This document shows positions 5,378 to 28,591 of a stretch of 64,000 bases of DNA, in pieces. Each line of letters opens with the position of its first letter. Position 1 is the first letter of the stretch. Below the pieces are notes generated by a model, which worked only from the letters and a program-made list of their open reading frames with translations, did not search any database and was not told where the DNA came from. The translations under genes and the position numbers were made by a program. Source of the DNA: Streptomyces sp. NRRL S-1022 (GTDB lineage: Bacteria > Actinomycetota > Actinomycetes > Streptomycetales > Streptomycetaceae); the NCBI RefSeq assembly GCF_000720135.1, contig NZ_JOIU01000006.1, forward strand, positions 196,526 through 260,525, given 5' to 3'.

Positions 5378-5574
5378 CCGACGCCGTGACCGCACGCTAC
5401 GTCGTGGTCGTCAACGACGAGGAGCAGTACTCCATCTGGCCGGCCGGGAGGCTGGTGCCGGCCGGCTGGCGGGCGGTGGGCCGGGCCGCGACCAAGGACG
5501 CCTGCCTGGCCGACATCGAGACCCGGTGGACCGACATGAGGCCGCTGAGCCTGCGGCGGGCCATGGAGTCCTGA
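5374..5574 (+). CDS. MbtH-like protein
   Basis: Small (66 aa) NRPS chaperone of the MbtH family, which binds adenylation domains and is often needed for their folding and activity. The family signature is plain: [10 protein letters not shown] followed by VPAGW, and the C-terminal block [21 protein letters not shown] ribosome binding site precedes the ATG by two bases. It stands between the Ser-activating synthetase and the free-standing Thr adenylation protein, so it may serve both. Confidence 0.95.
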
Positions 5575-5647: not shown

Positions 5648-7473
<1,826 letters not shown>

Positions 7474-7477
<4 letters not shown>

Positions 7478-8433
7478 CGGCGCAGACCACGGACTTCTCC
7501 CTCACCCCCGAGGAACTGGCGGCCTTCCACCGCGACGGCTTCGCGGGCCCCTTCACCCTCTACGAACCCGAGGAGATCGCCGACCGGTGGGGCCGGACCC
7601 GGCTGGAACTGCTCGACCGCAGCCACGCCGTCTACCGCGCCGACGCGGCCGTCTCGGGCAGCACCAACATCGCCAACTACGACCGCCACCTCGACCACCC
7701 GTTCCTCGCCCAGCACATCGGCCGCCCCGAGATCGTGGACCGCGTCGCCGGCATCCTCGGCCCCGACGTGCTGTGCTGGCGCACCGAGTTCTTCCCCAAG
7801 AACCCGGGCGACGAGGGCACCGACTGGCACCAGGCGGACACCTTCGCCAACGCCTCCGGCAGCCCGCAGATCCTGTGGCCCGGCGCATCCCGCTTCGGCG
7901 GCACCATCACCGTCTGGTGCGCCTTCAGCGAGGCCACCGTCGACATGGGCTGCCTGCAGTTCATCCCCGGCACCCACGAGTCCATGAACTACGACGAGAC
8001 CAAACGCATGCACTACGCGCCCGAACGCAACGCCTCCGTGGTGAAGGACGGCGTGCGGCGCGGCTTCTTCGGCTACGACTACCGGGAGCTGCAGATCGAC
8101 CCGGACTTCAAGCCCGACGAGTCGAAGGCCGTGTCGATGGAGATGCGCGCCGGGCAGTTCATCGTCTTCTGGTCGACCCTCATGCACGCCTCCCATCCGC
8201 ACTCCGGCAGGAGCAAGCAGATGCGGATGGGCTACGCGTCCCGGTACGTCCCCACCTCGGTGCGGATCTACCCGGACACCGAGGTCATCGAGGAGTACGG
8301 CGGCACGGTGAGCCTGGACCGCTACGGCGCGGTGCTGGTCAGCGGCGAGGACCGCTACGGCCACAACACCCTGGCCGGACACACCACCCGGGGCGTCCCG
8401 TTCCCGCACCGCTCCCGGCCGGCGACCCGGTGA
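7474..8433 (+). CDS. Non-haem Fe(II)/2-oxoglutarate-dependent halogenase (SyrB2-like)
   Basis: A 319-residue member of the SyrB2/CmaB family (SyrB2 is about 310 aa). These enzymes chlorinate unactivated methyl groups of carrier-bound amino acids using Fe(II), 2-oxoglutarate, O2 and chloride. The decisive feature is the metal site. The usual HXD of hydroxylases is replaced by HXA (His119-Gln-Ala121 within TDWHQADTF), which leaves room for a halide ligand. The second His is probably His238 in STLMHAS. Arg251, 13 residues further on, matches the spacing of the 2-oxoglutarate-binding Arg in SyrB2 (His235/Arg248). With a threonyl-loading A-PCP directly upstream, the predicted reaction is Thr-S-PCP to 4-chloro-Thr-S-PCP. 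Both ends overlap neighbours (ATGA), so translation is coupled. Bromination or another substrate cannot be excluded. Confidence 0.95.
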
Positions 8434-9542
8434 TGGACCCGTCGAGGCGCCTGGCGGAGGCCCTCGTCGACGCCGACGCCCTCGTCCGCGCCGTGCCCGG
8501 CCTGCGGGTCGCCTCGACGCCCGGCGCCCCGCTGACCCAGGTGCGGCTGGACTCCGTCACCGGGCAGCTGGGACTGCCCCGGCTGGAGGTGGTCGCGGAC
8601 CCCGACGGCCTGTGGTCCGTGGAACTGGCACTCACCAGACACCTGGCCCGGGCGAGCGCCGGGGACGGCACGGCCGCCGGGCCGGCGGGTCAGTGGCGTA
8701 CCGAGGGGCCGGTCCCGGTCCGGGCCACCGACGGCACCGCGCTGCGCTGCTGGTCGGCCGGGCCCCCGGACGCCCCCGTCGTCGCCCTGGTGACGGCCTG
8801 CGGCATGCCGGCCGGGCTCACCGCGGGATGGATGCGGGCGCTCGCCGGCCCGTTCCGCGTGGTGACCTGGGAGAGCCGGGGCATGTTCGGCGCGCCGGAC
8901 GCGGACGGTCCCGCCCCGCTCGGCGCGCATGACGTGGCCTCCCAGGCCGGCGACCTGCTCGCGGTCCTCGACGCCCTGGACGTCCCCGGTGCCCATGTGA
9001 TGGGACTGTGCGGCGGAGCGGTCCTCGCGCTGGCCGCGGCGGCCACCGCCGGCCCGCGGGTCAGCTCGCTCAGCCTGTGGCACGGCGACTACGACCTCGG
9101 GGACGCGGCACCGCGGACGGAGCACCAGCGTGACATGCAGGCCATGATGGCGATGGCCGCCCGCGGCCCGGAGAAGGCGGCGGGCGTGCACCGGCTGATG
9201 CGCCGCCCCGTGGTGCTGGACTCGCTGCGCCCCGACATCGCCCACCACCTCATCTACCCTTACGCGACTCCGCTGTTGCTGCACCGCTACGGCCTGCTCA
9301 ACGGAGCGATCATGTCCCACGACTCCCGCCCCTACCTGTCGGCCGCCCAGCCCGTGCTCGTGGTGACCAGCCGGGACGACGTCACCGCCCACCCGGCCGG
9401 ATCGCGCTACGTCGCGGCCCACCTGCCCCGGGCGCGGCTGGTCACCCGGCCGTCCGGCGACCACCTCACCGCGTTCGACGCGGGCCCGGAGGTGGTCCGG
9501 CTCGCCGAGCGGTTCCTGAGCGACGTCCTGGAGGACGCATGA
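8433..9542 (+). CDS. Alpha/beta-hydrolase aminoacyl shuttle with Cys nucleophile (SyrC/CmaE-like)
   Basis: A 369-residue alpha/beta-hydrolase fold protein. Its nucleophile elbow reads MGLCGGAV, with Cys193 where hydrolases usually have Ser. The Cys nucleophile is the hallmark of SyrC and CmaE, which take an amino acid from one carrier protein as a thioester and place it on another in trans. Likely acid and histidine partners are in TSRDDVTAH and SGDHLTAF near the C-terminus. The N-terminal 100 residues precede the hydrolase core. The start is ATG 8433 (GTG 8430 is also in frame) and overlaps the halogenase stop. Position right after A-PCP and halogenase argues that it moves the chlorinated threonyl group. 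The recipient could be the FkbM-PCP protein next door or an NRPS module outside the window. Confidence 0.85.
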   Translation: MDPSRRLAEALVDADALVRAVPGLRVASTPGAPLTQVRLDSVTGQLGLPRLEVVADPDGLWSVELALTRHLARASAGDGTAAGPAGQWRTEGPVPVRATDGTALRCWSAGPPDAPVVALVTACGMPAGLTAGWMRALAGPFRVVTWESRGMFGAPDADGPAPLGAHDVASQAGDLLAVLDALDVPGAHVMGLCGGAVLALAAAATAGPRVSSLSLWHGDYDLGDAAPRTEHQRDMQAMMAMAARGPEKAAGVHRLMRRPVVLDSLRPDIAHHLIYPYATPLLLHRYGLLNGAIMSHDSRPYLSAAQPVLVVTSRDDVTAHPAGSRYVAAHLPRARLVTRPSGDHLTAFDAGPEVVRLAERFLSDVLEDA

Positions 9543-10978
9543 GCCAGTTCGAGGACACCGACCCGGCCGGGCGGCTCGCGGCGGTGCTGCGCGAGCACGC
9601 GGCCGTGGCCGACGCCGCCGTGGAGGTACCGGACGGCGGCGGCCCCGCGGTCGTCCGCCTGGTCCCCGACCCGGAGCGGGCCCCGCTGCTGCACCGCTCG
9701 GCGGCCGTGGAGGCGGCCGGCCGCCTCGGCCCGCTCGGCTGGCACGAGCCCGCCGCCGACCTGCGGGTGGCCGGGGTGAACCGCAGCGAGAGCGACTTCC
9801 TCCACCGCGAGATCTTCGTGGACGACGTCTACTTCCGGCACGGCGTCGACCTGCCCGCCGGTGCCGTCGTCGTGGACGTCGGCGCCAACATCGGCATGTT
9901 CACCCTGTGCGCGGCCCGCCGCAGCCCCGGAGCACGGATCATCGCCTGCGAACCGCTCGCCGAACTCGCCGCCGCGGTGGCCGTCAACGCCGAAGTGCAC
10001 GCGGCCGACGTCACGGTCGTCGCCCGGGCCGTCGGCGCCGCCGAGGGGGAGGCGGACTTCACCTTCTACCCGCACAACAGCGTGATGTCCGGCGCGTTCG
10101 CCGACGCCGACGACGACCGGCGCACGCTGCGCGGCTACCTGCTCACCGGCGCCGACAGCGAGGGCGTGGACCCGCAGGACCGGCTCGTGGCCGACCGGCT
10201 CGCCGCCGACCTGCTGGCCGCCGAGCACCGGCGGGTCGCCGTCACCACGCTCGCCCGGATCGCCGCCGACCACGGGCTGACCCGGATCGACCTGCTCAAG
10301 ATCGACGTGGAGAAGGCCGAGGAGGACGTGCTGCGGGGCATCAGCCCCGAGCTGTGGGCCGGCATCCGGCAGATCGTGATGGAGGTGCACGACATCGACG
10401 GACGCCTGGCCTCCGTCACCAAGACCCTGGAGGGCCGGGGTTTCGGCGTCGTCCACGAGCAGGACCCGCGGCTGGCCGACACCGCCTGCGTCAACGTCTA
10501 CGCCCGCCGCCCCGGCGCGCCCGGGGACACCGGCGCCCGCCCGCCCGGGACCGCGCACCGGCCAAATCCCGGGCCGGTGCTGTGGCGCCTGGAGGCCGAA
10601 CTGCGCGACCTGCTGGCCCGCAGGCTGCCCGGCACCCCGGCACCGGGCCGGTTCGAACTCACCACCGACCTCGGGGCGGCCGGCGAGCGCGCGGAGGAGG
10701 TGCCCCGGGCCACCGTCCCGCTCTCGGCCCGTGCCGAGGTCTTCGCCCGGGTCTGGGCGGGCATCTTCGGCGCCGAGGCGGTCCGCCCGGACGCGGACTT
10801 CTTCGACCTCGGAGGCGACTCGCTGACCGCCATGCGCCTGCTGACCCGGCTGGAGGAGCAGCTCGGCGAGGACGCGCTGGAACCGGACCTGATCTTCACC
10901 GCCGGCACCTTCGGCGCGCTGGCCGCCGCCGTCGAGGCCTCCGGTGAGCAGCCCTCCGGTCCGGCCCGGTCCCGGTGA
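9539..10978 (+). CDS. FkbM-family methyltransferase fused to a C-terminal peptidyl carrier protein
   Basis: A 479-residue fusion. Residues about 90-330 form an FkbM-type SAM methyltransferase with the glycine-rich motif VVDVGANIGMF, the acidic block IIACEP and the IDLLKIDVEKAEEDVL segment typical of the family. The C-terminal 80 residues are a carrier protein with FFDLGGDSLTAMRL (Ser428). FkbM enzymes usually O-methylate; the acceptor here is unknown. Because it follows the shuttle gene with an ATGA overlap, its carrier may receive the chlorinated threonine and present it to the fused methyltransferase, much as CmaE loads the separate carrier CmaD in coronamic acid synthesis. That role is inference. 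The first 85 residues match nothing I recognise. Confidence 0.85.
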   Translation: MSQFEDTDPAGRLAAVLREHAAVADAAVEVPDGGGPAVVRLVPDPERAPLLHRSAAVEAAGRLGPLGWHEPAADLRVAGVNRSESDFLHREIFVDDVYFRHGVDLPAGAVVVDVGANIGMFTLCAARRSPGARIIACEPLAELAAAVAVNAEVHAADVTVVARAVGAAEGEADFTFYPHNSVMSGAFADADDDRRTLRGYLLTGADSEGVDPQDRLVADRLAADLLAAEHRRVAVTTLARIAADHGLTRIDLLKIDVEKAEEDVLRGISPELWAGIRQIVMEVHDIDGRLASVTKTLEGRGFGVVHEQDPRLADTACVNVYARRPGAPGDTGARPPGTAHRPNPGPVLWRLEAELRDLLARRLPGTPAPGRFELTTDLGAAGERAEEVPRATVPLSARAEVFARVWAGIFGAEAVRPDADFFDLGGDSLTAMRLLTRLEEQLGEDALEPDLIFTAGTFGALAAAVEASGEQPSGPARSR

Positions 10979-11715
10979 CCTCCACCAGCCGGTGGTTCCA
11001 CCGCCCGCTGGCCCGGCCCGCCGCCCGGGTCCGGCTGGTGGGCCTGCCGTACGCGGGCGGCGGCGCGGCGGTCTTCCGGGACTGGGCCGAGGAGCTGTCC
11101 CCGGACGTGGAGCCGGTGTGGGTCCGGCTGCCCGGCCGGGAGAGCCGGCTGGGCGAACGGCCGCTGTCCGACTGGGACGCGCTGGTCGGCGCGTTCGGCC
11201 GCGCCCTGATGCGGCACGTGCCCTCGCCGTACGTCCTGTTCGGACACAGCATGGGCGGCATGCTCGCGTACGAGGCGGCGACCGCCGGACTCGGCCGCCC
11301 ACCGGAACGCGTCGTCATCTCGGCCTGCCGCGCCCCGGGCGTCGCCCGCGCCCTGCCCGCCATCCACCACCTGCCGGAGCCGGAATTCGCCGCCCGGCTG
11401 CGCGACCTGGGCGGCGCTCCGGCGGAGGTCCTGGCCAGTCCCGGCCTGTTCCGGCTGTTCGCACCCGCCCTGCGCGCCGATGTGCGGCTGGCCGAGACCT
11501 GGCCGGCGCACCCGCCGCGCCCCGTCCCCGTCCCCGTCACCGTGCTGTGGGGCGACGCCGACCCGGTCGCCCCGCCCAGCGCCGTACGGGCGTGGCGGCA
11601 TCTGGCGTCCGGCGGGTTCCGGGGCCACGAGGTGACCGGCGGCCACTTCTTCCTCTCCGACCCGTCCGCCGGCGTGGTGGACCTGCTCAACCGCGAACTC
11701 GGAGCCGCCGGATGA
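10975..11715 (+). CDS. Type II thioesterase
   Basis: A 246-residue alpha/beta-hydrolase of the external (type II) thioesterase family, which clears mis-primed or stalled groups from carrier proteins. It has the N-terminal LVGLPYAGGGAA block, the catalytic elbow GHSMGG (Ser92), WGDADPVAP with the probable Asp, and GGHFFLSD with the probable His. It starts with GTG overlapping the upstream stop (GTGA) and ends overlapping the next ATG. No TE domain is visible in the NRPS proteins here, so a releasing role should also be kept in mind. Confidence 0.92.
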   Translation: MTSTSRWFHRPLARPAARVRLVGLPYAGGGAAVFRDWAEELSPDVEPVWVRLPGRESRLGERPLSDWDALVGAFGRALMRHVPSPYVLFGHSMGGMLAYEAATAGLGRPPERVVISACRAPGVARALPAIHHLPEPEFAARLRDLGGAPAEVLASPGLFRLFAPALRADVRLAETWPAHPPRPVPVPVTVLWGDADPVAPPSAVRAWRHLASGGFRGHEVTGGHFFLSDPSAGVVDLLNRELGAAG

Positions 11716-12884
11716 CACGATCCGTCTACCTGACCGAACGGCACGAGGAGTTCCGCGCCCGGGTGCGGGCGGTGCTGGACGCGCTCGCCGGGCCGGCCGG
11801 CGAGTCCTGGGAGCGGGAGGGGCGACTGCCCCGTACGGCGTGGAAGGTCCTCGGCGACGAGGGCCTGCTGGGCCTGCTGCACCCCCGGCGGGTGGGCGGC
11901 ACGGAGCAGGACCTGTTCACGTCCGTGGTGTTCCTGGAGGAACTCGGCCGCACCGGCTTCGGCGGCTGCCGCGCCGCGGTGTCCGTGCACGCCTACATGG
12001 CCACGCACTACCTGGCGGCGGCCCGCGATCCCGTGCTGGACCGCGACTACCTCGCCCCCGCGGTCCGCGGCGACCGGGTCGCCGCCCTGGCGATCACCGA
12101 ACCCGGCGCGGGCGCGGACCTGTCCGGGCTCGTCACCACGGCGGAACAGGACGGCGGCCACTATGTGGTCCGCGGGGTGAAGTCCATGGTCAGCAACGGC
12201 ACGAGCGCCGATTTCCACGTCGTGGCCGTCCGCACCGCGCCCCCCGCCGGCTCCGGGCCGCGCGGCACGACGGGGCTCTCCCTGCTGGTGGTCGACGCCC
12301 GGCTGCCCGGCATCACCACCGAGCCGGTGGCCACCCTCGGCTGGCGCTCCGCGGGCACGGCCACGGTGACCTACGACGGGGTACGGGTCCCGGTGGGCTG
12401 CCTGCTCGGTCGGCCCGGCAGCGGCTTCTACCAGCTGATGCGGGGCCTGCAACTGGAACGCCTGGTCGCCGCGGCGGCGGCGCTCGGCGGCATGGACCGC
12501 TGCCTGGAGGACACCCGGCGCTTCCTGACCGGACGCCGGGCGTTCGGCGGCCACCTGGCCGACCTCCAGGCCCCCGCCCACCGCATCGCCGACCTCGCGA
12601 CCGAGCTCGCGGCGGCCCGTCAGCTCGTCTACCACGCGGCCTGGCTCTACGAGCAGGGGGAGTTGCCGGCCACCGAGTGCTCGATGGCCAAGCTGCACAC
12701 GACGGAACTGGCGTGCCGGCTGGCCGAGACCAGCCTCCAACTGCACGGCTCGGCGGGCTACCTGGACTCCTCGGCGGTGGCGCGGATCCACCGCGACGCC
12801 CGCGCGGCCACCATCGCCGCCGGGCCGAGCGAGGTCATGCGTGATCTCATCGGACGGGCGGTGCTGCGGGCCCCGGCGTCCTGA
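11712..12884 (+). CDS. Acyl-CoA dehydrogenase-family flavoenzyme
   Basis: A 390-residue FAD-dependent acyl-CoA dehydrogenase fold. Visible motifs include ALAITEPGAGAD in the middle domain, a C-terminal helix block with LHGSAGYLDSS, and GPSEVMRDLIGR. The position that holds the catalytic Glu in medium-chain enzymes (YEGT) is Ala-Ala-Gly-Pro here. Glu249 in GLQLERL instead aligns with the base of isovaleryl-CoA dehydrogenase, so the enzyme should be active with that alternative geometry. It is coupled (ATGA) to the thioesterase. In lipopeptide clusters such enzymes usually introduce an alpha,beta double bond into the starter fatty acid; action on a carrier-bound amino acid is equally possible. 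Confidence 0.9.
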   Translation: MTRSVYLTERHEEFRARVRAVLDALAGPAGESWEREGRLPRTAWKVLGDEGLLGLLHPRRVGGTEQDLFTSVVFLEELGRTGFGGCRAAVSVHAYMATHYLAAARDPVLDRDYLAPAVRGDRVAALAITEPGAGADLSGLVTTAEQDGGHYVVRGVKSMVSNGTSADFHVVAVRTAPPAGSGPRGTTGLSLLVVDARLPGITTEPVATLGWRSAGTATVTYDGVRVPVGCLLGRPGSGFYQLMRGLQLERLVAAAAALGGMDRCLEDTRRFLTGRRAFGGHLADLQAPAHRIADLATELAAARQLVYHAAWLYEQGELPATECSMAKLHTTELACRLAETSLQLHGSAGYLDSSAVARIHRDARAATIAAGPSEVMRDLIGRAVLRAPAS

Positions 12885-12886: not shown

Positions 12887-12909
12887 GGCCGGCGTCCGGT
12901 CAGCCGGCC
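12887..12909. terminator. Short hairpin between convergent genes
   Basis: GGCCGGC and its complement GCCGGCC form a 7-bp stem with a 9-base loop. It spans the 15-base gap between the acyl-CoA dehydrogenase stop and the LuxR-family stop. It could end transcription from both sides, but it is short for a GC-rich genome. Confidence 0.35.
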
Positions 12910-15320
12910 AGCCCCCCTTCCATCCCGACGAGCGCGGCCAGCTGGGCCCGGGAACACAGCGTGAGCTTCTTGAACACCCGGGCCAGATAGGTCTCCACCG
13001 TCTTGGGACTGAGCGCCAGCGCCCGGGCGATCTGCTGGTTGGTCCGGCCCTTGCTGACCAGCACGGAGATCTCCCGTTCGCGTTCGCTCAGCCGGCTGAG
13101 CCCGGTCGAGGAGTCCGCGGGGCGGTCGTCCGGCACCGGCTCGGGCGCCCCGGCCGTGCCGGGCTCCGGCTCGGCCTGCGCCGCGTCCCTCCCGGCGGTG
13201 GCGCGTGCGGTGCCGGGCGGCCCGGGCCGGTCGGTCCGGGCGCGGAGCCGGCCGGCCGCTTCGGCCTGGAAACCGCTGCCCATGCGCTCGGCGGCGCGCC
13301 GGGCGTGGTCGGCGTACAGCCCGGCGGCGGCCGTGTCCCCCCGGGCCAGCAGGATCCGTCCCGCCGCGACGGCCAGTTGGGGGACGACGTAGCGCAGCCG
13401 GTGCCGCAGCGCGAGGTCGAGTGCGCGTTCCAGCCGCCCGAGCGCCGCGGTGTCCCGGCCCAGCGCGCTCTCGGCCCGGGCCACCCAGTACAGGGTGTCC
13501 AGCGCGCGCAGCGCCGGCTCGTCGCCCAGCCCGTCCGCCAGGCGGGCCGCGCGCTGCACCAGCTCGGCCCGCCCGCCGGCCGCGGCTGCGTCGGACCCGG
13601 AGGCGAGCGCCCGCAGCGCGAGCAGCAGGGCCCGCAGGGCGGGGTCGGGTTCCGTGACGGCGCCGGCGTCCTCGACCAGGGCCGGGCGCGGGCGTTCGCC
13701 CGCCTCCAGGCAGGTCTCCAGCAGGGCCGCCGTCGTTCGGGCCCGCAACTCGTGGGCGTCCGGCGTCAGGTTGGCGGCCGTCTTCTCCAGCAGGTCGGCG
13801 GCTTCGCCGTGCCGGCCCAGCAGGCGCAGCACCCGGGCGCGCCACAGCTCGGCGTCCGGGTGCGCCACCGAGCCCTTCTCCAGCGTGCCGTCGAACATGG
13901 CCAGGCTCCCGGCCGGATCGCCGCTCAGCGCCAGCGCCGTGGCGAGCCGCAGCCGCTGCCGGGGGTCGCCGGTGTCCGAGCGCGGGTCCAGCGTGGCCCC
14001 GAGCCAGCCGGCCGCGCGGTCGGGGCGTTGCCACAGCACGGAGCGCGCCGCCTCCTGGAGGATGCGGACGCCCTCGCCGTCCCGGGCGGTGAGCCCGCCG
14101 TGGCCCAGGTGCCAGGCGACGCGTGCCGGACAGGCCGCGCGGTCGCGCAGCGCCGTGGCCGCGCGCGCGTGGGCGCCCAGCTGCCAGGCGACGCCCGCCG
14201 TGTCGTGCGCCGTGCGGCGCACCAGCGGATCGCGGAACCGGAAGGTCCCCCTGGTGGCACCGGGCCGCAGGATGTCCCGCCGGACCAGCTCGTCCACCCC
14301 CGCCCGGGTCTCGTCCTCGCCGGCCCGCGCGGCTTCCGCCAGCAGCGCGGTGTCGAAGGGTTCCTGGAGCACGGCCGCCGCGTGCGCCACCGTCCGCCCC
14401 AGCGGGGACAGTCCGCGGAACTCGCGCAGCAGGGACATCGCCGGGTCGGCCGGAGAGTGCGGGCCGCCCGGCACGTCGTCGGCCCACGGGGCGCTCAGGG
14501 CGAGGGCGCGGAGCAGCCCGGGGCGGCCCTGGGAGGCGTGCAGCAGGCTGCGCAGCCGGGCGGGCAGCAGGGGCCGGGGCAGGAGGGCGCCGAGCTGCTC
14601 GTCGGGCAGCGGCGACAGCTCCAGCCGGGCGGACCGGCCGGCCGCCGCGGCCTCCCCCAGCAGGATGCGCAGGCTCTGCTGGTCCTGCCGGGGCCGGTGC
14701 GCGAGCGCCAGCACCACCCGCGGGGCGGGGTGCCGCAGCAGGTGCTGCAGGAGCAGGACCGAGGCCTCGTCGGCCAGGTGCATGTCGTCGAGGATCAGCA
14801 GCAGGCGGTCGCGGGAGCCGAGATGGCCGAGGAGGCTGCGGACCGCGTGCAGGGCGTGGTGGTGCTCGCAGGGGTTGGCGGGCAGCGCGACGGCCGGGGC
14901 GTGCCAGGACAGCGCCGGGAAGATGCCGGCCAGCCAGGACAGGTGGTGCGGGGAGAGCCAGGACACGGTCTGGTCGCCGACCGGTGCCAGCAGCTCGTCG
15001 AGGGCGTCGGCGAAGACGCCGAACGGAAGTCCCTCGGGGACCGATCCGGCCGCCGCGGAAGCCACCGTCCACCCCCGTTCACGCGCGCGTTCGCCGAGGG
15101 CCGCCAGGAGGGCCGACTTGCCCATCCAGGGGTCGCCCCGCACCTCGACGAGCGGCACGCCGGGTTCGTCGTGGTCGAGGACCTGTTCGAGCGCGGCGAG
15201 TTCCCGCGCTCTCGCGTGCAGGGCGTGCGCGCGCCCGTCCGCTGTCGTCGGCCGGCTGTCGGAGGGGCCCCGGGGGCCTGTCGCGTGGTCGGTGTGCCGA
15301 GTGTCCTCACGGTGTGGCAA
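12900..15320 (-). CDS. LAL-type LuxR-family transcriptional regulator
   Basis: An 806-residue large ATP-binding regulator of the LuxR family. It has a Walker-A-like loop GDPWMGKSAL (62-71), a Walker B LLLILDDMH (about 175), a long TPR-like helical middle, and a C-terminal LuxR helix-turn-helix (LSEREREISVLVSKGRTNQQ onward, about 740-795). LAL proteins commonly activate antibiotic gene clusters. This one sits between the two biosynthetic arms, convergent with the NRPS operon and divergent from the operon starting at 16151. The only start that keeps the N-terminal ATPase region is a TTG at 15320, preceded by AGAGG. No TTA (bldA) codon was noticed. The Walker A loop lacks the usual second glycine, so nucleotide hydrolysis is uncertain. 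Confidence 0.92.
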   Translation of the reverse strand: MPHREDTRHTDHATGPRGPSDSRPTTADGRAHALHARARELAALEQVLDHDEPGVPLVEVRGDPWMGKSALLAALGERARERGWTVASAAAGSVPEGLPFGVFADALDELLAPVGDQTVSWLSPHHLSWLAGIFPALSWHAPAVALPANPCEHHHALHAVRSLLGHLGSRDRLLLILDDMHLADEASVLLLQHLLRHPAPRVVLALAHRPRQDQQSLRILLGEAAAAGRSARLELSPLPDEQLGALLPRPLLPARLRSLLHASQGRPGLLRALALSAPWADDVPGGPHSPADPAMSLLREFRGLSPLGRTVAHAAAVLQEPFDTALLAEAARAGEDETRAGVDELVRRDILRPGATRGTFRFRDPLVRRTAHDTAGVAWQLGAHARAATALRDRAACPARVAWHLGHGGLTARDGEGVRILQEAARSVLWQRPDRAAGWLGATLDPRSDTGDPRQRLRLATALALSGDPAGSLAMFDGTLEKGSVAHPDAELWRARVLRLLGRHGEAADLLEKTAANLTPDAHELRARTTAALLETCLEAGERPRPALVEDAGAVTEPDPALRALLLALRALASGSDAAAAGGRAELVQRAARLADGLGDEPALRALDTLYWVARAESALGRDTAALGRLERALDLALRHRLRYVVPQLAVAAGRILLARGDTAAAGLYADHARRAAERMGSGFQAEAAGRLRARTDRPGPPGTARATAGRDAAQAEPEPGTAGAPEPVPDDRPADSSTGLSRLSEREREISVLVSKGRTNQQIARALALSPKTVETYLARVFKKLTLCSRAQLAALVGMEGGLAG

Positions 15321-16150: not shown

Positions 16151-17173
16151 ATGGTTCAGCTGGCGCCTGACGTGCCCAGGGACGCGGGAGACGGCCACGA
16201 CAAGACGCCCGTAGTGTGGGTGGTGGACGCTCCGGGCGGTGGATACGTCGAGAGCCCCGACATCGAGGGACGCGTCGTCGGCCCGCACGGCACCGTGCGC
16301 CTGGTCGTCGTGCCGGAAGACGAGCGGGACCGGCTGCCGGAGGCCGAGTGCGACTACATGATCCTCTGGCACCGTGTCCCGCTCGACGCCTCCTACTTCA
16401 CCCGCAACACCAGATGCCGCGCCGTCATCTGCGCCAGCACGGGGTACGACCACGTCGCCGTCGAGGCGGCCCGCGCCGCCGGCACCAGCGTCTTCCACAT
16501 CCCCCACTACGGCACCGAGGAGGTCGCCGACCACACCCTCGCCCTCTTCCTCGCCCAGGTCCGCAGGCTCCCCGACCTCCGCGAGCACGTGCGCGACGGC
16601 GGCTGGGACTGGCGCTCCATCACCGACGCCCCCCGGGTGCGCGACATGACCTGGGGCATCGTCGGGCTGGGCCGCATCGGCCTGGCCGTCGCCCAGCGCG
16701 CCCGCGCCTTCGGCATCCGGGTCTGCTTCCACGACCCCCACAACCACCCCGGGATCGAGAAGTCCCTGGGCCTGGAGCGCAGGCACTCCCTCGACGAACT
16801 CCTCGCCGACGCCGACGTGGTGAGCGTCCACGTCCCGCTCGACTCCACCACCCACCACCTGCTGGGCGCGCGCGAACTGGACCGGATGAAGCCCGGCTCG
16901 CTGCTGATCAACACGGCACGCGGCGGCGTGGTCGACGTCTCCGCGCTGCGCCCGGCGCTGGCCGCCGGCCGCCCCGGCCGCGTCGCGCTCGACGTCGTGG
17001 AGGGCGAACCGGAACTGCCGCACTGGCTGCGCGACCACCCCCGCGTGCTGCTCACCCCGCACGCCGCCTTCTACTCCGTGGCCTCGTTGGCCGAGCTGCG
17101 CACCCGGGCCGCCGAGGCGGTCCGCGAGCTGATCGTCGCGGCACCCGTCACCTCGGCCGTACGCGTGGTCTGA
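16151..17173 (+). CDS. D-2-hydroxyacid dehydrogenase family protein (CtBP-like)
   Basis: A 340-residue NAD(P)-dependent 2-hydroxyacid dehydrogenase. The nucleotide loop is VGLGRIGLAV (171-180). The catalytic triad of the family is present as Arg257 (INTARGG), Glu286 (VEGEPELP) and His304 (LTPHAAF). The segment FHIPHYGTEEVADHTLAL resembles the C-terminal-binding-protein branch. It reduces a 2-oxoacid or oxidises a 2-hydroxyacid; the substrate cannot be read from sequence. ATG 16151 follows AAAGGGGAG closely. It heads a co-directional run of six genes, so its substrate is probably an intermediate of that pathway. Confidence 0.9.
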   Translation: MVQLAPDVPRDAGDGHDKTPVVWVVDAPGGGYVESPDIEGRVVGPHGTVRLVVVPEDERDRLPEAECDYMILWHRVPLDASYFTRNTRCRAVICASTGYDHVAVEAARAAGTSVFHIPHYGTEEVADHTLALFLAQVRRLPDLREHVRDGGWDWRSITDAPRVRDMTWGIVGLGRIGLAVAQRARAFGIRVCFHDPHNHPGIEKSLGLERRHSLDELLADADVVSVHVPLDSTTHHLLGARELDRMKPGSLLINTARGGVVDVSALRPALAAGRPGRVALDVVEGEPELPHWLRDHPRVLLTPHAAFYSVASLAELRTRAAEAVRELIVAAPVTSAVRVV

Positions 17174-17226
17174 GCGCACCGGTACCGCCCCCCGACCTCA
17201 CCGCCGCTGAACCCCGAAGGATCTCG

Positions 17227-18408
17227 ATGGCTGTGGAAACCCTGTCCCCCGACGCCGCGAGGCAGGCGTGGACGGACTGGAAGTGGCAACAGCGCAACGC
17301 GGTACGCACCTCCCGCCAGCTGAAGAGCCACTTCCCCAACTGCGACCAGCGGCTGCTGGACATCATCGACCGGCACAACCGGACCAAGCGGTTCCAGGCG
17401 ACGCCCTACTTCCTCAGCCTCGTCGAGACGGACCCGCACACGGGCAACCCGCTGGCCGACGACCCGCTGTGGAAGCAGGTCGTCCCCATCGACACCGACG
17501 AGACGGGCGACGGGGAGGACCCCTACACGTACGACGGGAAGACCGAGAACTGGGAACTGCCCAGCGAGATGGTCACCCCGATCGCCCAGCACAAGTACGA
17601 CAACCGGGTCATCGTCCGCTACGCCAATGTGTGCCACGCCTACTGCCAGTTCTGTTACGAGGCGCTGCGCACCCTGGACCGCGACTCCACCAAGGTCTCC
17701 TTCGACCGCGGCCACTGGCAGGCCACGCTCGACTTCCTGCGCGCCAACCCGCAGGTGGAGGAGATGATCCTGAGCGGCGGCGAGCCGCTCATGCACAGCA
17801 ACGACCAGATCGACCAGGTGCTGACGGAGGCCCGCGCCGTCCGCCCCGACCTGATCGTGCGCCTGCACACCCGCTCGCTCACCTTCAACCCGTACCGCAT
17901 CGACTCCGGTCTCGTCTCCGTACTGGCCCGGCACGACGTGACCGCGGTCGGCCTGCACATCACGCATCCCCGCGAACTCAGCCCGGACTTCGACGACGCG
18001 GTACGCCGGCTGCACGGCGCGGTCCCCATCCTCTTCGCCAACGTCCCGCTGCTCGGCGGCGTCAACGACGACACCGGGACGATGCGGGAGCTGTGCATGG
18101 GCCTGTACCGGCGTGGCGTCCACGCCGGCTACCTGTACCACTTCATGCCGCACAGCCCCGAGGCGAGCGCCTTCCGCGTCCCCGTCAGCCGCGGGGTGGA
18201 GATCGTCCGCGCGCTCAAACGGCACATATCCAACCCCGCCGTGCCCGAATACGTGCTGCCGCACGCCACCGGCAAGTACACCGTCCCGCTGATCGACTCG
18301 CCGGACGCCTACCCGCGGCACGCCGTCGACGCCAACGGCGTCCGCGTCCTGCGCGCCGTCAACTGGCAGCAGGAAACCATCGAGTACCCCGACCCGGAGA
18401 TCGTGTGA
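17227..18408 (+). CDS. Radical-SAM lysine 2,3-aminomutase (KamA)-family protein
   Basis: A 393-residue radical-SAM enzyme of the KamA family, which uses a 4Fe-4S cluster, SAM and PLP to move an alpha-amino group to the beta carbon. The cluster motif is CHAYCQFC (Cys136, Cys140, Cys143), followed by MILSGGEPL. Near the C-terminus, ATGKYTVPL places Lys350 where KamA holds its PLP lysine. The acidic residues that recognise the lysine side chain in KamA could not be confirmed, so the amino acid substrate is open (Lys, Arg, Glu or another). It needs SAM, and a SAM synthetase gene lies three genes downstream. Confidence 0.9.
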   Translation: MAVETLSPDAARQAWTDWKWQQRNAVRTSRQLKSHFPNCDQRLLDIIDRHNRTKRFQATPYFLSLVETDPHTGNPLADDPLWKQVVPIDTDETGDGEDPYTYDGKTENWELPSEMVTPIAQHKYDNRVIVRYANVCHAYCQFCYEALRTLDRDSTKVSFDRGHWQATLDFLRANPQVEEMILSGGEPLMHSNDQIDQVLTEARAVRPDLIVRLHTRSLTFNPYRIDSGLVSVLARHDVTAVGLHITHPRELSPDFDDAVRRLHGAVPILFANVPLLGGVNDDTGTMRELCMGLYRRGVHAGYLYHFMPHSPEASAFRVPVSRGVEIVRALKRHISNPAVPEYVLPHATGKYTVPLIDSPDAYPRHAVDANGVRVLRAVNWQQETIEYPDPEIV

Positions 18409-18475
18409 GGAGCCGGACCCGGCTTCCCCGCACATCGCACCATCACACGGAACGACAGCGACGGAGGACAGGCGA

Positions 18476-19588
18476 GTGAGCAGGGATCTGAGCCTGGAGC
18501 GGATGCCGGCTCGGCACGGGGTGCTGCGCGACGCGCACGAGACCCCGGCCGAATCGGTGGAACGCAGGCTGAACGAGTGCCTCCGCGGCCCCGGGACGAC
18601 GGTGGAGCGACTCCCCGTCCACGACGACCTGACGGCCGCACTCACCCGGAGGCTGGAGGAGGGACTGTCCCACGGGGACGACGACGCGCTGCTCGACGTC
18701 CACCGCAGCGCCTACACCGTGTACGAGACCCTGCTGGGGCACCCGCTCAGCCCGGCCGCACGGCACGAACGCAGCACCTGGTTCAACGCGTTCCGCTCCC
18801 TGTACGAGGACCGCGTCCTCGCCGCGGACATCGAGGAGATCGCCGACCGGCTGCCCTCCGCGGGCGACGCCCGGCACCCCGGGTTCGTCCGCGAGTGGTT
18901 CCTCGCGGCGGCGAAGGAACGCAGCGACCTCGACCGGGCGGTGGAGACCTACCTGGCGGAGAAGGCCACGACCGGCCAACTGGCCGCCTTCATCCAGGCG
19001 GACGGCTACCTCAACTACCGCTTCTACGACGCCCTCGTGCTCGCCCAGCCGCACTTCATGGAGGGCGTCAAGCACGAGATCAGCAAGCACATGTGGGACG
19101 AGTGCGGGGAAGGCAGGCCCGACGCCGCGCACACCCTGCAGTTCACCCGCAGCCTGCGCCGGCTCGGCCTCGAACTGCCCACCGTCCCGCCCTGGGAGGA
19201 CTGGCGGCCGTACGCCGGACACAACCTCTACTTCCTGCTGGCCTGCAACCGGCGCCACTACTTCAAGGCCCTGGGCAGCCTGGCCATGCCCGAACTGTTC
19301 GACGTCGACCGCGACGCTGCGGTCGTCAAGGGCCTGGAACGCAACGGGTTCACCGCCCAGCACGACTTCGAGTTCTTCTTCAACCACATGGAGGGCGACG
19401 CCGAACACGGCCCCGAGTGGCTGGACGGAGTCGTGCTGCCCATCGTCGAGGCCGAGCCGGACGCCAGCATGGAACTGATCACCGGCGGACTGCTGCGGAT
19501 GCTGGCCATGCGGCGGTACAACGAATACCTCGCCGAGCGCCTGGGGCTGGCCGACGTACCGGACCTCCCCCAGGAGGGGAGGCGGTGA
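18476..19588 (+). CDS. Haem-oxygenase-like diiron oxidase (HDO) family protein
   Basis: A 370-residue all-helical protein of the iron-containing redox / HDO family, the group of UndA, BesC and the SznF N-oxygenase domain. Likely metal ligands are in KHEISKHMWDECGEG (Glu201, His205, Asp208) and in the late helix FFFNHMEGDAEHG (His304, Asp308, His311). Family members use O2 for C-C cleavage, desaturation or N-oxygenation of amino acids and fatty acids. Which of these applies is unknown. The start is GTG 18476 after GGAGGACAGGC. It overlaps the next gene by GTGA, so oxidase and aminotransferase are made together. Confidence 0.82.
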   Translation: MSRDLSLERMPARHGVLRDAHETPAESVERRLNECLRGPGTTVERLPVHDDLTAALTRRLEEGLSHGDDDALLDVHRSAYTVYETLLGHPLSPAARHERSTWFNAFRSLYEDRVLAADIEEIADRLPSAGDARHPGFVREWFLAAAKERSDLDRAVETYLAEKATTGQLAAFIQADGYLNYRFYDALVLAQPHFMEGVKHEISKHMWDECGEGRPDAAHTLQFTRSLRRLGLELPTVPPWEDWRPYAGHNLYFLLACNRRHYFKALGSLAMPELFDVDRDAAVVKGLERNGFTAQHDFEFFFNHMEGDAEHGPEWLDGVVLPIVEAEPDASMELITGGLLRMLAMRRYNEYLAERLGLADVPDLPQEGRR

Positions 19589-20646
19589 CCGGCGGGGAGG
19601 AGAACCCCTTCCCCTCCCTGGAGATGACCGAACGCGCCACGGGCCTGCGGGCGCGTGAACGGCTCAGCACCAACGAGAACGAGTTCGGACCGGCCCCCGA
19701 GGTGGTCCGCGCCATCGGCGCCACCGCCCGGGAGTGCCACCGCTACCCCGACTGCGACCACCACGAGCTGCGCCGGCGACTCGGGCACACCCTCGGCGTC
19801 CCCGAGGACCACGTGCACATCGGCTCCGGCATCGACGGACTGCTCGGCGTCATCGGCCGCGCCTTCCTCGGGCCGGGGCGCACCGCCGTGACCAGCGACG
19901 CCACCTATCCGACCTTCGCCTACTTCGCACGCGCCGGCGGGGCCACGGTCCACCTCGTGCCGTACCGGGACGCGCGCGTGGACACCGAGGCCCTGGTACG
20001 GCGGGCCACCGACACCGGCGCGGACGTCGTCTATCTCGCCGACCCCGACAACCCGACCGGCGGTTCGCTGGGCGCACCGGCCCTGCTGCGGCTGGCGGAC
20101 CGGCTGCCGGCCCGGACCCTGCTGGTCGTCGACGGCGCCTACACCGAATACCAGCCGCCCGCCGACCGGCCCGCGGCCGGCGAGCTGACCGGCCGGCGCA
20201 TGCTCTGGCTGCGCACCTTCTCCAAGGCCCACGCCCTGGCCGGCCTGCGGATCGGCTACGCGGTGGGCGACCGCGCCCTCCTGGCCGCACTGCGCCGGGG
20301 TGGCGAGCACTACGTCGTCGGCCGGGTGGCCGAGGCGGCCGCCCTCGCCGCGCTCGACGCCGTCGGGCATCTCACCGACACCGTCCGGCGCACCGCCGAG
20401 GGCCGGGCCCACTACGGCAGGCGGCTCACCGAGCTCGGCTACACGGTGCTGGAGGGCACGACGAACTTCGTGACCTTCCGCTGCGCCGACACCGAGACCG
20501 CCGCCGCCGTAGCCAAGCGACTCGCGCAGGCCGGGGTGTTCGTACGGCATCTGGCCGCACCCGGACTGACCGACTGCCTGCGGATGAGCATCGGTCCCAC
20601 GGCCCAGCGCGAGGCGGTCCTCGCCGAGCTGACCCGGGCGGCGTGA
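19585..20646 (+). CDS. HisC-like PLP-dependent aminotransferase
   Basis: A 353-residue fold-type-I aminotransferase of the histidinol-phosphate aminotransferase subfamily. It starts with the family block RLSTNENEFGPAP, has IGSGIDGLLGV, ADPDNPTGG and VVDGAYTEY for PLP binding, and the Schiff-base lysine in TFSKAHALAGLRIGYA (Lys214). No histidine biosynthesis genes are nearby, so it most likely converts an amino acid to or from a 2-oxoacid for this pathway. It would pair logically with the 2-hydroxyacid dehydrogenase. The start is GTG 19585 with a near-perfect AGGAGGGGA upstream. Confidence 0.9.
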   Translation: MTGGEENPFPSLEMTERATGLRARERLSTNENEFGPAPEVVRAIGATARECHRYPDCDHHELRRRLGHTLGVPEDHVHIGSGIDGLLGVIGRAFLGPGRTAVTSDATYPTFAYFARAGGATVHLVPYRDARVDTEALVRRATDTGADVVYLADPDNPTGGSLGAPALLRLADRLPARTLLVVDGAYTEYQPPADRPAAGELTGRRMLWLRTFSKAHALAGLRIGYAVGDRALLAALRRGGEHYVVGRVAEAAALAALDAVGHLTDTVRRTAEGRAHYGRRLTELGYTVLEGTTNFVTFRCADTETAAAVAKRLAQAGVFVRHLAAPGLTDCLRMSIGPTAQREAVLAELTRAA

Positions 20647-20719
20647 GGCGGCCCCCGCCGCAGCACACGCCCCCGCCCTCCCGCCCCGAGCCCCTCCTGC
20701 TTCGAGACAAGGAGTCCAC

Positions 20720-21889
20720 ATGGCCGCACCCCTGAGCTTCCGGTCCGGATCGCAGATCGCCGAGTCGGTGTGCGCCGGGCACCCCGACAAGGTCGCGGAC
20801 CGGATCTCGGACGCCGTGCTCGACGCCTTCCTGACGATCGACCCCCACGCCCGGGTCAACTGCGAGACCCTGGTCACCAGGGACAACGTGATCGCCACCG
20901 GTCAGATCACCGCGAACGCCGAGGTGGACATCGACGCGACGGTCCGCTCCGTGCTGCGCGAGATCGGCTACCACGACGTGGAGCGGCACGGCCTGAGCGC
21001 CGACACCTCGACCGTGCGGGTGCTGCTCGACCGCCAGTCCCGCGAGATCGCCGACGGGGTGGACCGCGGCGGTGCCGGCGACTCCGGCATCGTCTACGGG
21101 TACGCCTGCGACGAGACACCGGAACGGCTCCCGCTCAGCTGCGTCCTCGCCCACGACATCGCCCGCCGGGTCGGCGCCACCGGTGAGCAGGGCGTACCGG
21201 CGCTCGGACCGGACGGCAAGGTCCAGGTGGAGCTGTCCCGCCGGGACGGTGCCGAGCGGGCGATCGTCGTCGTCTCCGCGCAGCACCCGGCCGACCTCTC
21301 CCTGGACGAGCTGGCCGACCTGGTGGCGGGCAAGATCGTGACACCGGCGCTGGAGGACCGCGGCGTCGTGCCCGCCGACATCCACGTCAACCCGGCGGGC
21401 ACCTTCGTCGTGGGCGGCACCTCGGCCGACGCCGGGCTCACCGGACGCAAGCTCATGGTCGACGCCTACGGGGGCCTGGTCCGGCACGGCGGCGGCTGCT
21501 GCTCCGGCAAGGACGCCACCAAGGTCGACCGGTCCGGCGCGTACGCCGCCCGCTACCTCGCCGCCAACGTCGTGGCCGCCGGACTGGCCGGCCGCTGCCG
21601 GATCGGCCTGGCCTACGCCATCGGCCGCCCGCTGCCGGTCTGGCTCGACGTCGAGTGCTTCGGCACGGCCACGGTCGCCCACGAGCACATCGCCGCCGTG
21701 CTGACGGCCCTGGTGGACCTGCGGGTGGAAGCGGTGATCGAGCGCCTGTCGCTGCGCACCGCCGCCTACCAGCCGACCGCCGCCTACGGCCACTTCGGCC
21801 GCCCCGAGTTCTCCTGGGAGCGGCTCGACCTGGCGGACGCGCTCCGCTCCCGGCTCGGCGACGGGAAGACCGGCGCACCCACCGCCTGA
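20720..21889 (+). CDS. metK-like: Diverged S-adenosylmethionine synthetase (MetK paralogue)
   Basis: A 389-residue methionine adenosyltransferase. GHPDKVADRISDAVLDAF, GAGDSGIVYGYA, GLTGRKLMVDAYGG and HGGGCCSGKDATKVDRSGAY follow the family in order, and the C-terminal AAYGHFGR is present. Several normally fixed positions differ from E. coli MetK: GAGDQG is GAGDSG, HGGGAFSGKD is HGGGCCSGKD, and the glycine-rich GGEITT reads TGQITA. It therefore looks like a cluster-specific copy rather than the housekeeping gene. It would supply SAM to the radical-SAM enzyme, the FkbM methyltransferase, or as a direct C4 substrate for the PLP enzyme that follows. ATG 20720 follows ACAAGGAGT. Confidence 0.95.
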   Translation: MAAPLSFRSGSQIAESVCAGHPDKVADRISDAVLDAFLTIDPHARVNCETLVTRDNVIATGQITANAEVDIDATVRSVLREIGYHDVERHGLSADTSTVRVLLDRQSREIADGVDRGGAGDSGIVYGYACDETPERLPLSCVLAHDIARRVGATGEQGVPALGPDGKVQVELSRRDGAERAIVVVSAQHPADLSLDELADLVAGKIVTPALEDRGVVPADIHVNPAGTFVVGGTSADAGLTGRKLMVDAYGGLVRHGGGCCSGKDATKVDRSGAYAARYLAANVVAAGLAGRCRIGLAYAIGRPLPVWLDVECFGTATVAHEHIAAVLTALVDLRVEAVIERLSLRTAAYQPTAAYGHFGRPEFSWERLDLADALRSRLGDGKTGAPTA

Positions 21890-21903
21890 GACCACCGCCC
21901 CGA

Positions 21904-21938
21904 CCCCGGACTCCCGACCCCGGACTCCCGACTCCCGA
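21904..21938 (+). repeat. Short tandem repeat in metK/PLP-enzyme gap
   Basis: The 14-base unit CCCCGGACTCCCGA occurs twice in tandem, followed by a half unit CTCCCGA. It occupies the 92-base gap before the capreomycidine-synthase-like gene. It probably arose by slippage. Confidence 0.6.
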
Positions 21939-21981
21939 CGCCTCGTGCCCGACGCCTGACGAGAAGAGAGCGCCCGAAGAC

Positions 21982-23163
21982 ATGGCCCCCTTGCGGACCC
22001 GGCAGGAAGACCCCCCGATCCTCGAAGAGTGGTACCGCAGGCACCTGCCCGCCTGCCGCTTCGACATCAGCTCCAGCGGTGTCCACCCCTACTCCTTCGC
22101 GGAGGTCCGCGAGGTGTGCGCGCTGCGCGTCGAGGACCTGGACGGCATCGTCATGGACGACAGCGTCTCGGAGGGCGGCGCCGGCATCCGCCAGGCGATC
22201 GCCGACCGGTACTGCGCCGGCGACGCCGACCGGGTCCTGGTCACCCACGGGTCCAGCGAGGCGATCGCCCTGACCCTCGACGCCCTGCTGCGGCCCGGTG
22301 ACCGTGTGGTGGTGCAGGAGAGCATCTACCACTCACTGGGTTACTTCCCGCGGGAGACGGGATGCCGGACGGTGCCCCTGCCGGCCGACAGCGTCCGGGA
22401 CGGGGAGATCGACCCGGACACACTGGCCCGGCTGGTCACCCCGGACACGACGGCCGTCATCGTCAACTTCCCGCACAACCCGAGCGGCCGGACCCTGAGC
22501 CCCCGGGGACTGGACGCCCTGCTGGCCCGGGTGGAGGCCGTCGGCGCCGTCCTGGTCTGGGACGGCGCGACGGCGGAGATCGCCCACCGCTGGGAGCCGC
22601 TGCCCGACCCGGCGACCCGCTACGAACGGACCGTCACCTACGGCACCTTCTCCAAGACCTTCGGCCTGCCCGGCCTGCGCGTCGGCTGGGCCGTCACCTC
22701 GCCCGAACTGCTGCGGGCCACCTTCCCGCTGCGCGACCGCACCACCTTGTTCCTGTCCCCGTTGGTCGAACTCATCGCCGAGCACGCCATGCGGCACGCC
22801 GACCGGCTCATCGGCCGGCGCGCCGCGGAGGCCCGCCGCAACCTCGCCCACCTCACCGACTGGGCGGCCCGGCACGGAGAACTCGTCGACTGGACCCCGC
22901 CGGAAGGCGGGGTGTGCTGCCTGCTGGGTATCCGTGAACTGGCCCACGCGCAGGACCGCACCGCGGTCGAGGAGTTCTGCCGGGACCTGCTCGCCGCACA
23001 CAAGACGCTGCTGGTGCCCGGCTCCGCCTTCGACGCCCCCCGGTCGGTACGGCTGGGCTTCGGCGGGCCCGAGGCCGACTTCCGCGCCGGCCTCGAACAC
23101 CTCTCGCAGTTCCTGGCGCAGCGCGCGCCGGGCTCCGGCCGCGCCGGCGCTCAGGGCGGGTAG
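21982..23163 (+). CDS. Capreomycidine-synthase-like PLP enzyme (class I/II aminotransferase fold)
   Basis: A 393-residue fold-type-I PLP enzyme. Its N-terminal block FDISSSGVHPYSFAEVREV, the segment DDSVSEGGAGIRQAIADRY, THGSSEAI and VNFPHNPSG recall VioD, the viomycin enzyme that cyclises 3-hydroxyarginine to capreomycidine. The Schiff-base lysine is Lys225 in GTFSKTFGLPGLRVGW. VioD relatives carry out beta- or gamma-elimination followed by ring closure rather than simple transamination. Coming directly after a SAM synthetase, an enzyme that consumes SAM (as ACC synthase or SbzP does) is worth testing. The 3' end overlaps the PL11 remnant on the other strand. The VioD resemblance is from memory of the family, not a search. 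Confidence 0.82.
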   Translation: MAPLRTRQEDPPILEEWYRRHLPACRFDISSSGVHPYSFAEVREVCALRVEDLDGIVMDDSVSEGGAGIRQAIADRYCAGDADRVLVTHGSSEAIALTLDALLRPGDRVVVQESIYHSLGYFPRETGCRTVPLPADSVRDGEIDPDTLARLVTPDTTAVIVNFPHNPSGRTLSPRGLDALLARVEAVGAVLVWDGATAEIAHRWEPLPDPATRYERTVTYGTFSKTFGLPGLRVGWAVTSPELLRATFPLRDRTTLFLSPLVELIAEHAMRHADRLIGRRAAEARRNLAHLTDWAARHGELVDWTPPEGGVCCLLGIRELAHAQDRTAVEEFCRDLLAAHKTLLVPGSAFDAPRSVRLGFGGPEADFRAGLEHLSQFLAQRAPGSGRAGAQGG

Positions 23164-24697: not shown

Positions 24698-24794
24698 GTT
24701 CTGCTCCTCTCGGTTCGCATCAGGCGGTGGTGCACCCCCGGCGGGCGCCGCACCGAGGCGGGCGGGGTCCGCCGGGGAGTCGGTGTACGTCGTG

Positions 24795-28581: not shown

Positions 28582-28591
28582 AGCGGGTGGG

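What the first reader, a model, noticed from the sequence alone, without database searches (positions are those of the whole stretch)
16151..23163. Six-gene operon for an unrecognised amino acid pathway
D-2-hydroxyacid dehydrogenase, KamA-type aminomutase, haem-oxygenase-like diiron oxidase, HisC-like aminotransferase, SAM synthetase and capreomycidine-synthase-like PLP enzyme occur together and co-directional. Three are coupled or closely spaced. None is part of a complete primary pathway here. The set combines amino-group migration, O2-dependent oxidation, transamination/reduction and PLP-based cyclisation. I cannot match it to a known pathway, so it is the best candidate for new chemistry.
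Basis: partly seen in the sequence, partly recalled or inferred. Interest (0 to 1): 0.85.

Follow-up and report, generated by a model that had tools for sequence, protein, structure and literature searches.

The report
Five-gene cassette for unusual amino acid
Five of these six genes form a rare, portable gene set shared by several bacteria that probably builds one unusual amino acid of unknown structure, while the sixth very likely makes a known building block of the same peptide cluster.

Summary
The six co-directional genes are real and intact, but probably not one pathway. The first five (CtBP-like 2-hydroxyacid dehydrogenase, KamA-like radical SAM enzyme, haem-oxygenase-like diiron enzyme, HisC-like aminotransferase, variant MetK) keep their order in nine loci and diverge in step. 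Their surroundings differ: an NRPS cluster here; an alanine racemase and ligases elsewhere; a run of 13 genes in Actinacidiphila. The sixth gene is a capreomycidine synthase above its curated cut-off. It follows the cassette in only three of nine loci. In the two whose cluster could be read, a VioC-type arginine hydroxylase lies in the same cluster, here about 15 kb before the window. The whole is the right end of a roughly 45-kb lipopeptide-type cluster with a SyrB2-type halogenase. The KamA-like protein lacks the lysine-binding aspartates and misses all named aminomutase cut-offs; the MetK is a marked variant; the diiron enzyme is closest to HrmI, an N-oxygenase. The papers searched did not describe the five-gene set. 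The product is unknown. I favour amino-group migration, oxidation and resetting of the alpha-amine; that chemistry is inferred, not shown.

The parts
16151..17173 (+). CtBP-like D-2-hydroxyacid dehydrogenase (cassette gene 1)
   Evidence: Pfam 2-Hacid_dh and 2-Hacid_dh_C; best solved relatives are CtBP1/2, 228 bits, ahead of glycerate dehydrogenase, 190; R257, E286, H304 and F307 kept in 8 of 8 aligned
17227..18408 (+). KamA-like radical SAM/PLP enzyme of an unnamed clade (cassette gene 2)
   Evidence: 181 bits to the lysine 2,3-aminomutase model, cut-off 525; KamA-family model 170, cut-off 199; Pfam Radical_SAM 29.0, cut-off 29.5; CxxxCxxC and K350 in 19 of 19
18476..19588 (+). haem-oxygenase-like diiron enzyme, HrmI-like (cassette gene 3)
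   Evidence: Haem_oxygenas_2; HrmI top by sequence and by fold; five of six metal ligands in 20 of 20, D308 in 19 with Glu in one
19585..20646 (+). HisC-like fold-type I aminotransferase (cassette gene 4)
   Evidence: Aminotran_1_2; HisC model 239 bits, below its cut-off of 277; K214 in 8 of 8
20720..21889 (+). variant methionine adenosyltransferase (cassette gene 5)
   Evidence: TIGR01034 401.7 bits > 309.4; 51% identical over residues 111-380 to the other MetK on C12; DQG to DSG and AF to CC or CF in the cassette copies aligned
21982..23163 (+). capreomycidine synthase (VioD/OrfR type); assigned to the NRPS cluster, not to the cassette
   Evidence: TIGR03947 510.7 > 390.9; 592 bits to 4m2j; follows the cassette only in the window, L014 and L015/G1040
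12900..15320 (-). LuxR-family ATPase regulator, divergent from the cassette
   Evidence: AAA_16 and GerE; syntenic in G1040
3..5117 (+). NRPS: FAAL-type ligase (by Pfam DIP2-like AMP domain and position), T, C, A (read as Ser), T; starts 249 bp before the window
5374..5574 (+). MbtH-like protein
5648..7477 (+). SyrB1-like A-T protein (read as Thr)
7474..8433 (+). SyrB2-like non-haem iron halogenase
   Evidence: TIGR01762 466.8 > 226.3; 496 bits to SyrB2, 2fct
8433..9542 (+). alpha/beta hydrolase, SyrC-like by position (inference)
9539..10978 (+). FkbM methyltransferase fused to a carrier domain
10975..11715 (+). thioesterase, type II by position
11712..12884 (+). acyl-CoA dehydrogenase family enzyme

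Best explanation
The region is the right end of a roughly 45-kb NRPS cluster of lipopeptide type. Genes 1-5 are a portable cassette that makes one non-proteinogenic amino acid, used here as a peptide building block. Gene 6, with the VioC-type hydroxylase upstream of the window, makes capreomycidine. Shown: gene content, conserved order, co-divergence, separability of gene 6, conserved catalytic residues. Inferred (my probability for this chemistry about 0.25): the KamA-like enzyme moves the amino group of a non-basic L-amino acid from C2 to C3; the diiron enzyme oxidises the product; the dehydrogenase and aminotransferase interconvert 2-hydroxy, 2-oxo and 2-amino acid so that an alpha-amine is set again, giving an alpha,beta-functionalised amino acid (for example a 2,3-diamino or beta-N-oxidised one). 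The variant MetK supplies the SAM that the radical enzyme needs. An NRPS, a GCS2 ligase, ATP-grasp ligases or an exporter then takes the amino acid, depending on the host.
For: Identity matrices correlate at 0.90-0.97; at most 1 of 2000 permutations reaches the observed value. Of the 120 best KamA relatives, 44 share a longest-contig length with the 120 best HDO relatives (mean 0.55, at most 3, with shifted lengths) and 40 with the HADH list. Capreomycidine pair and cluster synteny. KamA has P308 and P345 where the two lysine-binding aspartates align. HDO's nearest fold is HrmI, followed by 3bjd, SznF, FlcD, CtCADD and RohS. All six adenylation domains of the cluster carry Asp at the first code position, as alpha-amino acid substrates usually need (my reading; rule recalled). 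Consumers differ: GCS2 in L017-L019, ATP-grasp in L020, EamA exporter in G850.
Against: No product, substrate or expression data. KamA and HDO can be parted: in the stretches held, L021 has the HDO and none of the other four, cyanobacterial L023-L025 have HDO beside NACHT and no KamA, and Burkholderia L012 has KamA and no HDO. HDO enzymes do many reactions, so the nearest relative does not fix the reaction. The order of steps is not constrained. Which adenylation domain takes the product is unknown. K350 as PLP lysine is an inference: the pairwise alignment sets it two residues before the aminomutase lysine (role recalled).
Confidence: 0.55

Rival explanations
1. The cassette is methionine/SAM-centred. 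SAM is the carbon source or is consumed stoichiometrically, methylthioadenosine is released, and the CtBP-like dehydrogenase and aminotransferase act on the methionine-salvage keto acid.
For: A MetK paralogue with shared active-site-region changes is in each of the nine core loci although the core holds no methyltransferase. Methionine-salvage genes lie beside the cassette in L018 (MtnA, MtnB and acireductone synthase above cut-offs) and in L019/G674 (by similarity to the L018 ones). The dehydrogenase is nearest CtBP, whose best known substrate is 4-methylthio-2-oxobutyrate, contacted by Trp318 (passages of PMC6303947); the cassette has Phe there in 8 of 8.
Against: Salvage genes are adjacent in only 2 of 9 loci, and all 10 genomes searched hold a match to the L018 MtnAB protein somewhere. 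Phe is not Trp, and the same paper calls the physiological CtBP substrate unknown. I know of no enzyme of the core that releases methylthioadenosine.
Confidence: 0.3
2. Dehydrogenase and aminotransferase make the precursor L-amino acid, KamA moves the amine to C3 and the diiron enzyme N-oxygenates it to a beta-hydroxylamino, oxime or nitro acid, the final product.
For: HDO nearest to HrmI by sequence and fold, with the N-oxygenases SznF and RohS also among the matches; an AurF-family protein joins the run in G850.
Against: The six adenylation domains of the cluster all look alpha-amino specific (my reading). FlcD and CtCADD, which are no simple N-oxygenases, rank among the matches too.
Confidence: 0.2
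3. All six genes form one pathway to a new cyclic guanidino amino acid, the capreomycidine synthase acting on the cassette product.
For: Same strand, 92-bp gap, kept in three loci.
Against: Six of nine core loci lack the sixth gene in the stretches read; a VioC-type partner is in the same cluster.
Confidence: 0.07

Closest known systems
Lysine 2,3-aminomutase and the KamA family
   Same: Radical SAM cysteine motif, a conserved lysine near the PLP-lysine position, length; 145.6 bits to 2a5h
   Different: Pro at both lysine-binding Asp positions and E145 at the Arg134 position of the alignment; below the cut-offs of the named aminomutases and of the general KamA model
HrmI/BelK lysine N-oxygenases (hormaomycin, belactosin)
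   Same: Fold and metal-ligand pattern
   Different: 23-24% identity in the fold matches; the five cassette genes include no Fe/2OG cyclising partner
Capreomycidine pathway VioC/VioD (viomycin), OrfP/OrfR (streptothricin; names of the latter recalled)
   Same: VioD-type synthase above cut-off and VioC-type hydroxylase in one cluster
   Different: Split to two places of an NRPS cluster; the hydroxylase is below the VioC cut-off (364.6 against 418.6) and above the GntD one (363.1 against 345)
Syringomycin SyrB1/SyrB2/SyrC 4-chlorothreonine branch
   Same: Thr-type A-T protein, SyrB2-like halogenase, alpha/beta hydrolase in a row
   Different: Actinobacterial cluster; the rest of the assembly line differs
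AetD, BesC, PolF, UndA (other HDOs of amino and fatty acids)
   Same: Superfamily and ligand set (review PMC13108848, section 4 and passages read)
   Different: BesC ranks 38 with E 4.7e-3 and UndA 49 with E 0.14 in the fold search; a KamA partner was not mentioned in what I read

Membership tests
Lysine 2,3-aminomutase | CxxxCxxC cluster motif | tested here: met
   19 of 19 aligned
Lysine 2,3-aminomutase | PLP lysine (Lys337, recalled) | tested here: inconclusive
   K350 in 19 of 19, but two residues off in the pairwise alignment
Lysine 2,3-aminomutase | Asp293 and Asp330 for the lysine side chain (numbers recalled) | tested here: not met
   P308 and P345 at these places, 19 of 19
Lysine, glutamate, arginine 2,3-aminomutases, EpmB, KamA subfamily | NCBIfam curated cut-offs | tested here: not met
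   181/525, 168/650, 165/600, 145/369, 170/199 bits
HDO superfamily | 3 His/3 carboxylate ligand set and fold | tested here: met
HDO N-oxygenases | N-oxygenation of an amine | not testable with these tools
   nearest relatives only
Methionine adenosyltransferase | TIGR01034 cut-off | tested here: met
   401.7 > 309.4
Methionine adenosyltransferase | GAGDQG motif (called near-universal from recall) | tested here: not met
   GAGDSG or GSGDSG in the cassette copies aligned; the other copy of the genome keeps DQG
Histidinol-phosphate aminotransferase | TIGR01141 cut-off | tested here: not met
   239.4 < 276.55
CtBP subfamily of 2-hydroxyacid dehydrogenases | catalytic Arg/Glu/His and aromatic residue at Trp318 | tested here: inconclusive
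   triad met; Phe for Trp; CtBP best solved match
Capreomycidine synthase | TIGR03947 cut-off | tested here: met
   510.7 > 390.9
Capreomycidine pathway | arginine beta-hydroxylase partner in the cluster | tested here: inconclusive
   VioC model 364.6 < 418.6, GntD 363.1 > 345; best structures are VioC/CmnC, 321-322 bits
Single transcription unit | one mRNA | not testable with these tools
   spacing and absence of internal terminator-like sites only

The most novel reading that the evidence does not exclude
The KamA-like clade is a radical SAM/PLP enzyme with a new outcome: it uses SAM or a methionine-derived amino acid as substrate and consumes SAM stoichiometrically with release of methylthioadenosine. 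That would explain the variant MetK present in every core locus, the adjacent methionine-salvage genes of two loci and the CtBP-like dehydrogenase. The diiron enzyme then oxidises the rearranged product to an amino acid class not yet described.
Probability: 0.15. Interest if true: 0.88.

Novelty: new variant of a known kind. Interest (0 to 1): 0.6.

Why it matters
It defines a conserved five-gene unit, with an unassigned radical SAM/PLP clade, a diiron partner and a dedicated MetK, that several actinobacterial lineages plug into different assembly systems; contig-length matches suggest parts of it reach further. Solving one copy would name a new amino acid building block and point to it in the others. 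It also corrects the six-gene reading, separating known capreomycidine chemistry from the unknown part.

Tried and rejected
Rejected: a single six-gene pathway (the sixth gene is absent from the stretches read at six of nine core loci). Rejected: a lysine, glutamate or arginine 2,3-aminomutase by name. Rejected: the genes at window -45 to -33 kb (ADI-like, copper amine oxidase-like, ACAD-A-T) as part of the cluster; they find no counterpart in the 95-kb S. cinerochromogenes stretch compared. Rejected: biffamycin as the product (passages).

Led nowhere: papers on capreomycidine with chlorothreonine or lipopeptides, S. cinerochromogenes clusters, aminomutase with HDO or MetK and HrmI-type N-oxygenases; none described the set in what I saw. 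Genome draws beyond the window's own genome added only G674, G1040 and G850. The KamA model, mean pLDDT 72.9, was not used. Adenylation codes were read by eye against codes recalled from memory.
Full report
Observation. The gaps are 53, 67, -4, 73 and 92 bp. No terminator-like site was found between them. A divergent LuxR-family regulator lies upstream at 12900-15320.

Setting. The window is contig 6, 196526-260525, of an 8.9-Mb genome. Upstream and on the same strand lie NRPS genes with a FAAL-type loading part, an MbtH protein, a SyrB1-like A-T protein, a SyrB2-like halogenase (496 bits to SyrB2), an alpha/beta hydrolase, an FkbM methyltransferase with a carrier domain, a thioesterase and an ACAD. 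NRPS genes continue to about 21.7 kb before the window. There, on the minus strand about 15 kb before the window, sits a VioC-type arginine hydroxylase (L009:3862-4908; VioC model 364.6 bits, below its cut-off of 418.6; GntD model 363.1, above 345; up to 322 bits to VioC structures). S. cinerochromogenes (G1040; contig length equal to that of L015) keeps this arrangement from the stand-alone carrier gene to the sixth gene, with the hydroxylase included. It lacks the genes at -45 to -33 kb and the MFS gene at -10.4 kb. The cluster is therefore about 45 kb and the six genes are its right end. The S. tricolor contig L014 (8 kb) shows only a LuxR piece, the five genes and a sixth gene cut by the contig end, so its NRPS part was not seen.

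Five plus one. The HDO scan of genome contigs returned 8 loci; 7 of these 8 hold HADH, KamA, HDO, HisC and MetK in that order. The eighth, L021 of Nocardia crassostreae, holds the HDO and none of the other four in the 21 kb read. A family-wide draw added G850, whose contig length equals that of Actinacidiphila reveromycinica in the protein lists, with the same five in order. With the window this makes nine core loci. The capreomycidine synthase follows MetK only in the window, L014 and L015; weak matches in L016, L017 and L019 are the HisC-like gene. In L016-L020 an alanine racemase stands between KamA and HDO (173.9 bits against a cut-off of 168 for the L018 copy; the others 60-76% identical to it). 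A GCS2 ligase follows MetK in L017-L019 and two ATP-grasp genes in L020. Neither the racemase nor the ligase has a counterpart in the window or the 40 kb before it. In G850 the five lie in a run of 13 co-directional genes with a methyltransferase (442 bp apart from the rest), TauD, AurF-family, Ldh_2, IlvE, EamA, a second KamA-family protein and L-2-hydroxyglutarate oxidase. The ten pairwise correlations of the five identity matrices are 0.90-0.97, with at most 1 of 2000 permutations reaching the observed value. Order is kept and divergence runs in parallel, so the five appear to move as one unit.

Reach. In the protein database the 120 best KamA relatives include 44 whose longest-contig length equals that of one of the 120 best HDO relatives, where shifted lengths give 0.55 on average and 3 at most; 40 match the HADH list (119 lengths) and 27 match both. 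Among 71 KamA relatives under 60% identity, 19 match HDO and 13 match HADH. The lists were cut at 120, so these are lower bounds, and equal length is indirect evidence of one contig. In genome draws the set is rare: 1 of 199, 1 of 396, 2 of 392 (KamA query), 3 of 394, 2 of 305 and 2 of 284 genomes, the window's own genome included each time. The draws overlap.

Enzymes. KamA keeps the cluster cysteines and K350 in 19 of 19, but has P308 and P345 where lysine 2,3-aminomutase binds the lysine side chain and E145 at Arg134, with an invariant R148 three residues on (aminomutase residue roles recalled). K350 lies two residues off the PLP lysine in the pairwise alignment, so its role is inferred. 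The protein misses the curated cut-offs of the named aminomutases, of the general KamA model and, by half a bit, of Pfam Radical_SAM. HDO keeps five ligands in 20 of 20 and D308 in 19 (Glu in one). Its nearest structures are HrmI (E 1e-10, TM 0.70-0.72 by query length), then 3bjd, SznF, FlcD, CtCADD and RohS; BesC is at rank 38 and UndA at rank 49. The dehydrogenase is closest to CtBP, an enzyme best with 4-methylthio-2-oxobutyrate in vitro, and has Phe for the sulphur-contacting Trp in 8 of 8. MetK is a family member, 51% identical over residues 111-380 to the other copy of the genome, with motif changes shared by the cassette copies.

Mechanism. The facts to explain are: an amine-moving enzyme freed from lysine; an oxidase near N-oxygenases; a 2-hydroxy/2-oxo/2-amino interconverting pair; a dedicated SAM source with no methyltransferase in the core; and consumers that take amino acids. 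I favour migration, oxidation and resetting of the alpha-amine, because all six adenylation domains of the cluster carry the Asp that binds the alpha-amine (my reading). The methionine-centred rival is close behind. For it: CtBP likeness, the dedicated MetK, and salvage genes beside L018 and L019. Against it: only 2 of 9 loci show this, and each of the ten genomes searched has a match to the salvage protein somewhere. No call decides between them.

Known or new. Capreomycidine and chlorothreonine chemistry are known. The five-gene set was not found described in the searches made (open-licence PMC papers only), so other literature could hold it.

Noticed in passing
L023:11302-14900, L024:11197-14924, L025:11331-14951: On cyanobacterial plasmids (two Nostoc strains, Leptolyngbya boryana) a relative of the HDO (44-51% identical) follows a NACHT-type gene on the same strand (annotated so in two, by similarity in L025), with no KamA in the stretches held. 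NACHT is 35% and HDO 58% identical between the genera; PADLOC matches are weak. It could be an NLR-like defence pair with a diiron effector.
   Followed up: partly
L012:11950-16548: In Burkholderia cenocepacia a KamA of this clade (48%) is followed by an ATP-grasp-like protein, a putative amino acid dioxygenase and an MFS-like transporter (all three named by eye), a compact possible dipeptide cluster; no HDO in the 25 kb held.
   Followed up: partly
   Followed up: partly
window 5648-9542: SyrB1/SyrB2/SyrC-like trio predicts a 4-chlorothreonine-type residue in the product.
   Followed up: no
L011:15875-20000 and L010:1-6838: A separate group upstream, with aldehyde dehydrogenase, PhyH, copper amine oxidase-like and arginine deiminase-like genes (named by eye), a thioesterase, ACAD-A-T and ACAD, has no counterpart in the S. 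cinerochromogenes stretch compared.
   Followed up: no
window 23603-32573: Minus-strand genes downstream begin a different region; four of them have counterparts in S. cinerochromogenes, there set apart by five other genes after the sixth gene.
   Followed up: no
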